A stretch of 64,000 nt of DNA from Gammaproteobacteria bacterium. Lineage in GTDB: Bacteria > Pseudomonadota > Gammaproteobacteria > SZUA-152. The translations under genes and the position numbers were made by a program. The stretch covers positions 43,759 through 107,758 of the forward strand of contig JAKIUN010000003.1 of NCBI GenBank assembly GCA_021647505.1, in the 5' to 3' direction. Of this stretch, positions 13,812 through 20,010 are shown piece by piece; the first letter of the stretch is position 1, and each line of letters begins with the position of its first letter. A model generated the notes under the pieces. It was given only the letters and a program-made list of their open reading frames with translations. It was not told where the DNA came from and searched no databases.

Positions 13812-14614
13812 TTGAATAAGTTATACAGATCATTTCAGCCAATCTTAACGGAAGCAGGACTGAAACGTTTTGGGCTGATCCTGGAATACTCTCTTGCCTG
13901 TAAAACTTTAAGGGGCATCGTTCATTCTTATTTGCAGATCAGTACAGCAAAACCCACGCCCTACCCCGTTATACCGGATGGAACCCAGGCGGTTTATATC
14001 GCACCTCATGGTGCAAAAATAGGTGGGGCTCAATCCCGGGCACGTGATATTCAAATACTACAGCCGGGGGATTGTTTTGGCATTCGATTTTACCCCGGCG
14101 CCTTGCGATATTTTTTTGATATAAATATTTTTGGAATTACCGATCAATTCGTTGATGAGAATTTTCTTCCTTGTTGTGGGTTCGGTGAATTACATAACAA
14201 TATTTATCAATACCACAGCTTTTATGAACGGGCACGTGTTTGTGAGCAATGGTTGTTACAACAATATAAACCCCGTCCGGCACTCAGTTTAAACATGCGT
14301 TGTCCCTGATATACCAGTCCTTTGGTAATATAAAAATTGCTCAGTTGGCGACAATGGTGGGTTGAGGTAGTCGTTATTTAAATCGCTTGTTTCGACTTCA
14401 CGCCGGGCTGAGTACTAAGGAATTTGTCCAGACGATTCGTATTCAACATGTCTGTAAAAAACTGTATATGGCACTGGGCAATTCTCTGAATGCAGCACTT
14501 GATCTGGGATTTTTTGATCAGTCTCACCTGATAAAAGATTATAAGAAGCATTTGTTATTGAGCCCAATTCAGGTCAATATTGCCGCAATGTCAGCGTATT
14601 GCCCCGCTGGGTGA
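13812..14614 (+). pseudogene. AraC family transcriptional regulator, frameshifted and interrupted
   Basis: N-terminal sensor half (13812..14309) and HTH half in another frame: HALSLIYQSFGNIKIAQLATMVG*GSRYLNRLFRLHAGLSTKEFVQTIRIQHVCKKL. In-frame TGA at 14363 plus a frameshift near 14290-14300. Confidence 0.75.
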
Positions 14615-16748: not shown

Positions 16749-17008
16749 GGCTGTTTCCTGTGTCTGATGGAATGGGACATGATTCGTTGCGCACTATTGT
16801 AGCAGGCTGGCGTCCGCCGTAGACCATTTGTTATATTCGTTTATCAATGCCAATTTTTTACTATACGATCTGAAAAAATAGCTGTTTTAGTACCTTTATG
16901 TAGATATTCAATTACACCAACAAGTTTCTTTGGAATAATCAATGTTAATTGGCATCTGAGTTGGTAGTGAGACTGAGTAGTTCATTGTGTATGACATTAA
17001 CTTTAATT

Positions 17009-17260
17009 TTAGATCTTCACAAAGTAGATAAGCATTCTTAAACTCCTCTTTTTTAGTGAAATCTCCAGACTCACCATCTCGATCTCACAGTTATCAAAAA
17101 TGGAATGTACTACTACTTCTTTATCTTCGATTGTATAGAAAATGGAAAACGTCGAACCACACAACCCTGGAAGTAAGAATAATAAATTCTGTACATTATC
17201 GGATCGAAAGAAAAGCAAGTGATTAATATTTAATCCCTCCGTCCCCTTTGCCATGCACAT
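17009..17260 (-). CDS. Small ORF immediately downstream of the fic gene, function unknown
   Basis: 83 codons starting 3 nt after the fic stop, same strand. No family recognised. Confidence 0.3.
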   Translation of the reverse strand: MCMAKGTEGLNINHLLFFRSDNVQNLLFLLPGLCGSTFSIFYTIEDKEVVVHSIFDNCEIEMVSLEISLKKRSLRMLIYFVKI

Positions 17261-17262
17261 TA

Positions 17263-18654
17263 TTATAAAGATTCAAGGTTTTGTTTGAGATTAGCAGTTG
17301 GTGTAAATGAAAATGCCTTCCCAATTTTTGTTTTATTTAGAACCCCCATTTTAACTAACTTAAGCAAATCAGTTCTGGCAGTATCATAAGTTACATTATG
17401 CGCACCTCTATGACTTTCAACATAAAATACTGCATCAGGATTTTTTAAGGCTCTATTTATTAGTGCAATTTGCCGATAATTAAGTAATTTATTTAAGCGA
17501 GGAGACTTTCTTACTATATGTTCAACAGTTTTTATTTCTTTAGATTTATTCTCTAAATAAATTAGTAAGTCTTTTGTTGCTTGGTTAATGACGTTTAATT
17601 GATGAACAATAAAGTAGGTTACATCATTATCATCTGTTTCTGTATGTAGATAGGCTCGTGTATATTTGGCGGGGGCAGACTTTAGTATTTTAGAAATAGA
17701 AATAAATTCCATGGTCCAGTACCCTTGTTTTAGCATAGACCAATAAAATAATGCCCGTGCTGTTCTACCGTTACCATCTTCAAATGGATGGTCATATGCA
17801 AGTAGGAAATGCAATATTATTGCACGAATAACAGGGTGTAAAAATTCTGTGTGATGGGTAGCATTCGCAAAGTTACAAATATTTTCTATTCTGTTTTGTA
17901 GTTCTTTTGCTTTTGGGGGGATGTGAATTATAGTTGCATCACGGTCATCACCCACATATATATCATCTGATACGCGCAGCCTGCCTACTGTGTCTGGATC
18001 GTCCATTGTGTTATTGCTTAGAATTCTATGTAATTCATATATAAGTTCAGGCGTAAGTGACTCATTGGATATGTCCTTTATATATTCCATTGCATGATAA
18101 TTATTAAGGATCATTGTTTCAGACTTATCACGTGGCTTACATTTTTGCCTAAGCATTTCTTTGGCTACTTTTCTAGTTGTTGCTGCACCTTCAAGCTGAC
18201 TTGATGTTATTGACTCTTCAATTAATGAATTTATAAGATAAGTATCTCGTGTATTTGGGTTGGCTATTTGTTCCGTTGTTTTTAACTCTCCACCCCCATG
18301 TACATCTATTTCATGTAATAACCGACGTACTGTATCAGGCTCGCCAAAAACGAAAGAATTACCATCTTTATCTGAATGTGGAATATTTTTGTAAAGTGCT
18401 TTACGTGCAATTTTTATAGCTAACCACCATTCTTCAGGATTTGACATTGCTGAAGGGAGTTTTAAGTGCCTTAATTTGTCCCAGTGGTAGTACTTCCCTT
18501 TGGGGTCAGGTTTTATACCAGATGAGAATATTTCGCCTAGTTTCTCAGGGGTGTGTTTGATTATATAGTCAATCGAGCTTTGAAAGCTGGGCGGGGAAGC
18601 TGGGATTTTCACACTTATTACCAATAAATTATTTATTGGTAATAAGTGTAGCAT
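17263..18654 (-). CDS. Fic family protein with internal inhibitory helix motif and C-terminal winged-HTH-like region
   Basis: Fic core HPFEDGNGRTAR; inhibitory motif SSQLEG upstream (class II); C-terminal TYDTARTDLLKLVKMGVLNKTKIGKAFSFTP. GTG at 18612 (VKIPASPPSF) is a plausible alternative start. Confidence 0.9.
   Translation of the reverse strand: MLHLLPINNLLVISVKIPASPPSFQSSIDYIIKHTPEKLGEIFSSGIKPDPKGKYYHWDKLRHLKLPSAMSNPEEWWLAIKIARKALYKNIPHSDKDGNSFVFGEPDTVRRLLHEIDVHGGGELKTTEQIANPNTRDTYLINSLIEESITSSQLEGAATTRKVAKEMLRQKCKPRDKSETMILNNYHAMEYIKDISNESLTPELIYELHRILSNNTMDDPDTVGRLRVSDDIYVGDDRDATIIHIPPKAKELQNRIENICNFANATHHTEFLHPVIRAIILHFLLAYDHPFEDGNGRTARALFYWSMLKQGYWTMEFISISKILKSAPAKYTRAYLHTETDDNDVTYFIVHQLNVINQATKDLLIYLENKSKEIKTVEHIVRKSPRLNKLLNYRQIALINRALKNPDAVFYVESHRGAHNVTYDTARTDLLKLVKMGVLNKTKIGKAFSFTPTANLKQNLESL
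18611..18649. promoter_or_regulatory. 18-bp-arm perfect palindrome at fic 5' end
   Basis: ACACTTATTACCAATAAA-TTA-TTTATTGGTAATAAGTGT. Confidence 0.75.
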
Positions 18655-18671
18655 CTAAAAATGCAATTTAC

Positions 18672-18751
18672 TACCAAATTGACATTAATTGGTAGTAAAT
18701 TGGTATTAAGGACTAAATACCAAATCGGTATTAATTGGTAGTAAATTGGTA
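18672..18751. repeat. Array of TTGGTA/TACCAA boxes including a 22 bp direct repeat (attaattggtagtaaattggta at 18684 and 18730)
   Basis: Boxes at 18672(inv), 18689, 18700, 18718(inv), 18725 (TCGGTA), 18735 and 18746. The 22-mer repeats exactly with a 46 bp offset. Confidence 0.8.
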
Positions 18752-18960
18752 GTTGTCAAGTCTTTATCTTGCTGATTTATATGATGTTATTAATTTATGG
18801 TAAATAATCTAACAGTTGTATTGAACTGACGTCCGCAATCTACCTACTTATGCGGACGCCGGTATAAGTCCGCAGGCACTGTTTTCTTATCGCCAGGTAC
18901 CCCCATACTAATCAGGATATTTCCCGGAAACAAGGCAACAGCATGTCAGGCACACCTACC

Positions 18961-20010
18961 TTATAGCGCGAATTCTGGAAGGCGGCCGAGGAGTTTAGCG
19001 ACGGGAGCGGGCAACCCGCCGGGGGCGGTGTCCTGAGGGTGGTGCCACAGCCAGCTGTTGTCACGCACGGCATGGGTGGAGACGAGATGGGCGTGCACCG
19101 GAGTGATGTGGAGATGAAAGTGGCTGAAGGTGTGGCGCAATGACGGCCAATGAGCGGCCTCTTCCACTTGCAACCCCCATTGCTCGCGGCCGGCTTCGGT
19201 GACGTTGCTGCCGGCAGGCAGTTCCGGCAGGCTGAGCAGTCCGCCCCAGATGCCGGTGGGCGGGCGGCGCTGAAGCAATATCCGGCCTTCGCTGTCTTGC
19301 AGCAGGAGCATCACTGTTTCGCGTACCGGCAGGGTTTTCTTCGGCTTGCGGCCGGGGAAGTCGGTCTGTCGGCCTTCGATGCGGGCACGGCAGGCGACGG
19401 CCAACGGACATCTGTTGCAGCCTGGCCGGCTGTGGGTGCAGACGGTGGCGCCGAGATCCATCATGGCTTGGTTGAAGTCAGCACTGCGCTGGTGCGGTGT
19501 CAGTCGTTCGGCGTGATCCCACAGTGCACTGAGCACGGCGCTTTTTCCCGGCCAACCTTCCAGTGCATAGTAGCGTGACAGCACCCGCTTGCAGTTGCCA
19601 TCGAGGATGGCGTGGTGCTGATTCAGGGCCAGTGACAGGATAGCGCCAGCGGTGGAGCGGCCGATACCGGGCAAGGCTTGTACCTGCTTGATGTCTTCGG
19701 GGAAGTGGCCACCGTGTTCGTTGCGCACGATCTGTGCCGCGCGGTGCAGATTGCGTGCGCGGGCGTAGTAGCCAAGCCCGGACCAGTGTAAGAGCACGGT
19801 GTCCAGATCCGCCACCGCCAGTGTCTCAATGTCGGGGAAGCTGGTTATGAAGTGCTCGAAATAGGGGATCACCGTGGCCACCTGGGTCTGCTGTAGCATG
19901 ATTTCCGAGACCCACACGCGATAGGGCGTGATCTCACGCTGCCAGGGCAGGTCGTGGCGGCCGTGGTGGCTGAACCAGTCCAGCAGGTGGCGGGCGAAGT
20001 TGCCGCCCAT
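18961..20010 (-). CDS. mutY: A/G-specific adenine glycosylase
   Basis: WFSHHGRHDLPWQREITPYRVWVSEIMLQQTQVATVIPYFEHFI, LPGIGRSTAGAILSLAL, and [4Fe-4S] motif CTHSRPGCNRCPLAVAC. Confidence 0.95.
   Translation of the reverse strand: MGGNFARHLLDWFSHHGRHDLPWQREITPYRVWVSEIMLQQTQVATVIPYFEHFITSFPDIETLAVADLDTVLLHWSGLGYYARARNLHRAAQIVRNEHGGHFPEDIKQVQALPGIGRSTAGAILSLALNQHHAILDGNCKRVLSRYYALEGWPGKSAVLSALWDHAERLTPHQRSADFNQAMMDLGATVCTHSRPGCNRCPLAVACRARIEGRQTDFPGRKPKKTLPVRETVMLLLQDSEGRILLQRRPPTGIWGGLLSLPELPAGSNVTEAGREQWGLQVEEAAHWPSLRHTFSHFHLHITPVHAHLVSTHAVRDNSWLWHHPQDTAPGGLPAPVAKLLGRLPEFAL

What the first reader, a model, noticed from the sequence alone, without database searches (positions are those of the whole stretch)
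18611..18751. Dense, helically phased operator-like array upstream of an autoregulatory-looking Fic gene
Within about 140 bp there is an 18-bp-arm perfect palindrome (ACACTTATTACCAATAAA-TTA-TTTATTGGTAATAAGTGT), an exact 22 bp direct repeat 46 bp apart, and nine TTGGTA/TACCAA boxes (one TCGGTA). Many are spaced 10-11 bp (18689/18700, 18725/18735/18746), i.e. on one DNA face. The Fic protein has a C-terminal winged-HTH-like segment that could bind these boxes, and an SSQLEG inhibitory motif. The combination suggests cooperative autorepression of an AMPylator, perhaps with activity-dependent derepression.
Basis: partly seen in the sequence, partly recalled or inferred. Interest (0 to 1): 0.7.

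Follow-up and report, generated by a model that had tools for sequence, protein, structure and literature searches.

The report
Self-repressing Fic enzyme with matched operators
A stand-alone bacterial AMP-transferring (Fic) enzyme appears to switch off its own gene by binding a precisely spaced array of short DNA boxes, and across about 50 relatives the box sequence changes in step with the two amino acids at the tip of the enzyme's DNA-reading helix, so one can nearly read which box each protein recognises.

Summary
The pair TACCAA-N11-TTGGTA occurs only three times in the 3.74-Mb genome, all here. In 43 of 55 homologue upstreams an exact inverted hexamer pair sits at spacer N11 (shuffle mean 2.65).

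Half-sites keep a fixed layout, direct at 10, 11 and 21 bp and convergent at 7, 17 and 28 bp, while their sequence differs by clade: TACCAA, TATCAA, TACTAA, TACTTG, TGCTAA, TCCTAA, TTCTAA.

Of 88,336 pairs of protein columns, residues 409+410 predict exact half-site identity best. These are the first two residues of the recognition helix in the predicted C-terminal winged HTH. This points to the Fic protein itself as the binder. The boxes flank or cover the promoter, the gene has no conserved neighbour, and sister genomes lack the cassette. I conclude it is a single-gene, autorepressed class-II Fic protein. Its nearest tested precedent is CccR, but the operator geometry differs. Activity-dependent derepression is unsupported. 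Repression and binding are inferred, not measured.

The parts
17263..18612 (-). fic gene, 449 aa, GTG start at 18612; class-II Fic (inhibitory motif N-terminal to the FIC motif) with a C-terminal wHTH
   Evidence: ORF; Pfam Fic 5e-17; start chosen from homologues beginning MK[IM]P
18187..18204 (-). SSQLEG, residues 137-142, class-II inhibitory motif (S/T)xxxE(G/N)
   Evidence: S137, S138, Q139, E141 and G142 invariant in 56 homologues, L140 nearly invariant
17764..17790 (-). catalytic FIC motif HPFEDGNGR, residues 275-283
   Evidence: direct reading; H275, F277 and D279-R283 invariant in 56 homologues
17299..17478 (-). C-terminal winged helix-turn-helix, residues 379-438 (helices 379-390, 398-405, 409-421; wing strands 425-430, 433-438)
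   Evidence: AlphaFold2 model, mean pLDDT 87.9; fold matches SoFic, CbFic2 and CccR
17350..17388 (-). recognition helix, residues 409-421 (YDTARTDLLKLVK); 409, 410 and 414 covary with the DNA box
18611..18649 (.). proximal operator: perfect palindrome holding TACCAA-N11-TTGGTA (boxes 18619-18624 and 18636-18641), next to the start codon
   Evidence: same -30/-13 placement in L006-L010
18645..18653 (-). candidate extended -10 element TGCTACACT, overlapping the outer arm of the proximal palindrome
   Evidence: TGNTANNNT at -36 to -43 in all 7 TACCAA-clade members with an uninterrupted leader, and upstream of the insertion in L030; no consensus sigma-70 pair found by the scan
18672..18705 (-). 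distal operator unit, four half-sites (-93, -82, -72 TGTCAA, -65) with spacing ->11->10->7<-
18718..18751 (-). second distal operator unit, four half-sites (-139, -128, -118 TACCGA, -111); 46 bp from the first
   Evidence: only one unit in the 98%-identical relative L012
16827..18808 (.). approximate extent of the A+T-rich inserted cassette (fic plus array) between yggX and mutY; about 100 bp in the sister genome G064

Best explanation
The array is the operator of the fic gene and is bound by the Fic protein's own C-terminal winged HTH. The module is a single gene: a class-II AMP-transferase that limits its own expression. The basic site is an inverted pair TACCAA-N11-TTGGTA, read by two recognition helices of a dimer. 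The proximal pair lies over the start of transcription and the start codon. The distal pairs carry two further half-sites 10 and 11 bp apart on the same DNA face, giving four half-sites (->11->10->7<-). They would let more subunits load side by side and tighten repression. Shown here: the sites, their conserved geometry, their uniqueness in the genome, and the matching of box sequence to recognition-helix residues. Inferred: binding, repression, cooperativity and the promoter.
For: (1) TACCAA-N11-TTGGTA occurs at three places in the whole genome, all in this array; the reversed control pattern occurs at none. (2) Inverted hexamer pair at N11 in 43 of 55 homologue upstreams; shuffles mean 2.65, max 4; in-gene control 1; downstream control 6. 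(3) Over 46 loci with different boxes, direct spacings 10 (22 loci), 11 (23), 21 (15) and convergent spacings 7 (16), 28 (20) peak against about 1 expected, while 9 and 12 do not (the 17-bp convergent count, 46, is by construction). (4) Box sequence follows the helix. Residues 409/410: YA with TATCAA 12 of 13; YQ with TACTAA 6 of 6; TQ with TGCTAA 3 of 3; NQ with TCCTAA 2 of 2; KQ with GTCAAA 2 of 2; YD with TACCAA 7 or, where 414 is K, TACTTG 5. (5) In 1080 protein pairs under 55% identical, identical boxes occur in 60% when 409 and 410 both match and in 0% when both differ; this column pair ranks 1st of 88,336. Blind MI ranks Y409 first for base 2 and D410 first for base 3 and for the whole hexamer. 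(6) AlphaFold2 places 409/410 at the N-terminus of the recognition helix. (7) No neighbour gene is conserved. (8) CccR, a Fic-HTH protein, represses its own promoter (PMC9755527).
Against: No binding or expression data exist for this protein. Phylogenetically independent contrasts are few: sign tests on starred branches gave about 2:0, 1:0 and 2:0 and cannot reach significance, although no contrast went the other way. About 40 of 90 loci had no exact automatic call, many because of spacer 10 or imperfect boxes. CccR's footprint has a quite different geometry (N26). The half-site registers of the most divergent (actinobacterial) loci are uncertain.
Confidence: 0.87

Rival explanations
1. The boxes bind another regulator (a host factor or a neighbouring gene's product), and Fic is only the regulated gene.
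For: Direct binding has not been measured. Host regulators commonly use inverted repeats.
Against: No neighbour is conserved beyond three closely related planctomycete loci. Box sequence differs between clades and follows Fic residues 409/410 better than any other pair of Fic columns. The paired box is unique to this promoter in the genome. The same layout occurs in Gammaproteobacteria, Planctomycetes and Actinobacteria.
Confidence: 0.06
2. The palindrome is an RNA element (attenuator, terminator or start-codon hairpin), and the rest is incidental repetition.
For: The window's palindrome has 19-nt perfect arms next to the start codon.
Against: In homologues only the boxes stay paired: the inner N11 averages 2.5 symmetric positions of 5. 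The palindrome has no T-tract terminator. Rfam gives no match near its gathering scores. With the inferred -10, transcription would start inside the palindrome, and the remaining leader does not fold (z 0.72). The array also contains direct, phased half-sites that would not form hairpins.
Confidence: 0.03
3. The array is a replication, recombination or transposition element (iterons, or ends of the inserted cassette).
For: It lies near one edge of an A+T-rich insertion absent from sister genomes. The 46-bp unit varies in copy number between near-identical loci.
Against: The array stays with the fic start codon in unrelated genomic places. No rep, transposase or integrase gene is in the cassette, and the array is not at both ends.
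Confidence: 0.02

Closest known systems
CccR (YPK_0951) of Yersinia pseudotuberculosis, PDB 7XUX, PMC9755527
   Same: Class-II Fic domain plus C-terminal HTH in one protein; binds inverted repeats near its own promoter and represses itself; fold match.
   Different: Only a distant relative (7XUX aligned over residues 133-298, E 1e-7). CccR's operator is AGATAATCAT-N26-ATGATAATCT, not 6-bp boxes at N11 with extra phased half-sites. CccR is a T6SS effector; nothing here indicates secretion.
SoFic (SO_4266) of Shewanella oneidensis, PDB 3EQX/3ZCN; NCBIfam NF046030, PADLOC PDLC03963
   Same: Best fold match (E 3.9e-13); Fic domain plus C-terminal wHTH; stand-alone gene.
   Different: About 21% identity; 59 bits against a cut-off of 550 for the NCBIfam equivalog. 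29 SoFic-family upstream regions show various inverted repeats but no N11 peak. PMC10628234 states that SoFic DNA binding had not been shown.
CbFic2 of Coxiella burnetii, PDB 8CIL, PMC10628234
   Same: Fic plus wHTH; DNA binding through the wHTH; fold match.
   Different: Tested with random DNA only, no operator known; DNA binding was reported to stimulate (de)AMPylation, which is untested here.

Membership tests
Fic/Doc family (Pfam PF02661) | Fic fold with HPFx[D/E]GN[G/K]R motif | tested here: met
   Pfam 62.9 bits against cut-off 24; HPFEDGNGR invariant in homologues; fold match
Class II Fic proteins | Inhibitory (S/T)xxxE(G/N) helix N-terminal to the FIC motif in the same chain | tested here: met
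   SSQLEG at residues 137-142, in 56 homologues
Class II Fic proteins | AMP transfer autoinhibited by the Glu | not testable with these tools
   needs enzyme assay
SoFic equivalog (NF046030) | score above curated cut-off (550 bits) | tested here: not met
   59 bits
Autorepressed Fic-HTH proteins (CccR-like mode) | C-terminal (w)HTH domain | tested here: met
   AlphaFold2 model residues 379-438, fold matches
Autorepressed Fic-HTH proteins (CccR-like mode) | inverted-repeat operator in its own promoter | tested here: met
Autorepressed Fic-HTH proteins (CccR-like mode) | binding and repression demonstrated | not testable with these tools
   inferred from covariation only
CccR orthologue | full-length orthology and the N26 operator | tested here: not met
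   partial, distant match; N11 geometry
Type II toxin-antitoxin (Fic/Phd-Doc type) | separate antitoxin gene next to the toxin | tested here: not met
   no conserved neighbour in 90 loci; the inhibitory motif is in the same chain

The most novel reading that the evidence does not exclude
A cross-phylum family of one-gene AMP-transferases uses a composite operator of four half-sites (->11->10->7<-) with a readable recognition code: residue 409 sets base 2 (Y=A, T=G, N=C, D=T) and residue 410 sets bases 3-4 (A=TC, Q/E=CT, D=CC). Loading several subunits on such an array would also hold the Fic domains in a defined oligomer, so the operator could gate enzyme activity as well as expression.
Probability: 0.3. 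Interest if true: 0.75.

Novelty: new variant of a known kind. Interest (0 to 1): 0.58.

Why it matters
PMC9755527 says almost nothing is known about how class-II Fic enzymes, the largest class, are controlled. I found one demonstrated autorepressor (CccR) in the literature searched. Here is comparative evidence that a wide group of Fic-wHTH proteins autorepress through operators of fixed geometry, with a near one-to-one match between two helix residues and the DNA box. That gives directly testable binding predictions for about 50 proteins, a natural data set for wHTH-DNA recognition, and sets of probably orthogonal repressor-operator pairs.

Tried and rejected
Rfam search of the leader gave only chance-level hits. 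Consensus sigma-70 and terminator scan: nothing. Testing whether SoFic-family genes share the N11 operator: they do not, though inverted repeats of other spacings are common. Search for a partner gene: none. Phylogenetically independent sign tests were underpowered. Ranking single residues by mean half-site similarity was confounded by clade signal, with P260 and I306 on top; I therefore rely on exact-match ranking over column pairs and on MI. Phage and viral collections gave few relatives. A literature search for Fic operators found only CccR and the CbFic2 paper.

Full report
Observation. Between 18611 and 18751 there are eight exact TACCAA/TTGGTA boxes and one TCGGTA. Two thousand dinucleotide shuffles of the same 141 bp gave a mean of 0.37 and a maximum of 3 boxes. 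In the whole 3.74-Mb genome the paired form TACCAA-N11-TTGGTA occurs at three places, and all three are in this array; the reversed control pattern does not occur.

Gene. The Fic ORF most likely starts at GTG 18612, because homologues begin MKIP/MKMP at that point; the palindrome therefore ends at the start codon. The protein has the catalytic HPFEDGNGR motif and the class-II inhibitory SSQLEG motif, both conserved in 56 homologues. The AlphaFold2 model (mean pLDDT 87.9) has a C-terminal winged HTH at 379-438, with recognition helix 409-421 and wing strands 425-438. The closest solved folds include SoFic, CbFic2 and CccR. It falls far below the SoFic equivalog cut-off.

Context. The gene sits in an A+T-rich stretch between yggX and mutY (mutY named from the ORF at 18961-20010 by reading, not by a family search). 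In same-genus genome G064 the two flanks are about 100 bp apart, and in G369 other DNA without fic fills the gap, so the cassette was acquired. Among 90 loci no neighbour gene recurs except in three closely related planctomycete loci. It is a one-gene module.

Anatomy in gene orientation (positions relative to the start codon). The proximal pair is at -29/-12 (-30/-13 in most close relatives). An extended -10-like TGCTACACT is at -41; TGNTANNNT occurs at -36 to -43 in the window and the six other TACCAA-clade members with an uninterrupted leader. Distal unit one is -93, -82, -72, -65, and its duplicate is -139, -128, -118, -111. Each distal unit is ->11->10->7<-. A near-identical locus (L012, 98% identical over the part covered) has only one distal unit, so unit number varies. 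In L030 (74% identical, same helix) a short element with inverted ends has split the proximal pair, while two distal units and a -10-like element survive upstream of it.

Comparative test. Relatives were collected from genome contigs, class-wide genome samples, plasmids and viral contigs. In 55 upstream regions, an exact inverted hexamer pair with 11 bases between occurs in 43; shuffles average 2.65 (max 4), in-gene controls give 1 and downstream controls 6. Across 46 loci called automatically, distances between boxes peak at 10, 11 and 21 bp (direct) and at 7 and 28 bp (convergent); 17 bp is built into the calling. Without the window's clade the same peaks remain (15, 16 and 8 of 39 direct; 9 and 13 convergent). 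Four-half-site units with at most 3 mismatches in total are found in 20 of 80 loci, including Gammaproteobacteria with TATCAA boxes (L013, L051) and Actinobacteria (L106, L110, L112). It is strongest in some clades and absent from others: the TACTTG clade has a lone pair.

Who binds. The boxes differ between clades and the difference follows the recognition helix: YA with TATCAA, YQ with TACTAA, TQ with TGCTAA, NQ with TCCTAA, DQ with TTCTAA, KQ with GTCAAA, YD with TACCAA, and YD followed by K414 with TACTTG. In 1080 pairs of proteins under 55% identical outside the HTH, boxes are identical in 60% of pairs when residues 409 and 410 both match and in none when both differ; mean body identity is nearly equal, 0.51 against 0.48. 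Of 88,336 column pairs across the whole protein, 409+410 is the best predictor (phi 0.65). Blind mutual information over 438 columns puts 409 first for base 2 and 410 first for base 3 and for the whole hexamer. On a tree built without the HTH, the box label changes at least 17 times. Formal independent-pair tests have too few contrasts to be significant, but none goes the wrong way. I read this as coevolution of the Fic wHTH with its own operator.

Mechanism. Most likely a Fic dimer binds the N11 pair; bound at the proximal pair it covers the expected start of transcription, and in several other clades the box overlaps a -10-like sequence directly, for example TGATATACTTG (L038) and TGGTATACTTG (L035). 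Extra phased half-sites would recruit more subunits. Repression itself is inferred. Coupling between AMPylation and repression is not supported: CccR H192A still represses, and CccR's regulatory and toxic activities were judged independent (PMC9755527). DNA binding stimulating catalysis, as reported for CbFic2 with random DNA (PMC10628234), remains open.

Novelty. Autorepression by a Fic-HTH protein is known from CccR. New here, as far as the searched literature shows, are the N11/four-half-site geometry, its spread across phyla, and the recognition code. I file it as a new variant of a known kind.

Noticed in passing
L030, about -110 to -12 upstream of fic: A short element with near-perfect inverted ends (GGAAGCTCTGATTAAT...ATTAATCAGAGCTTCC) appears inserted inside the proximal box pair, with TTAG on both sides; the distal units survive upstream of it.
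   Followed up: partly
window 16827-18808; L144, L146: The yggX-mutY gap is a variable insertion spot: fic cassette here, about 450 bp of other DNA in G369, about 100 bp in G064.
   Followed up: partly
L113-L142 (SoFic-family loci): Upstream regions of SoFic-family genes also carry inverted repeats, with varied spacers (N7, N14, N16) and different boxes (e.g. TTTCTTTAATT in L115); possibly another group of autoregulated Fic-wHTH genes with another geometry.
   Followed up: partly
L067, L071, L072, L073 (Klebsiella plasmid), L080, L081: More distant Fic-wHTH genes (33-41% identity) have inverted repeats built on CTCAA/TTGAG just before the start codon, mostly with helices of the type xNTAR.
   Followed up: no
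window 13812-14614: Two adjacent ORFs (13812-14309 and 14387-14614) look like one AraC-type regulator broken by a frame change.
   Followed up: no
window 17009-17260: 83-aa ORF just downstream of fic in the A+T-rich cassette, same strand, no Pfam, NCBIfam or PADLOC match.
   Followed up: no
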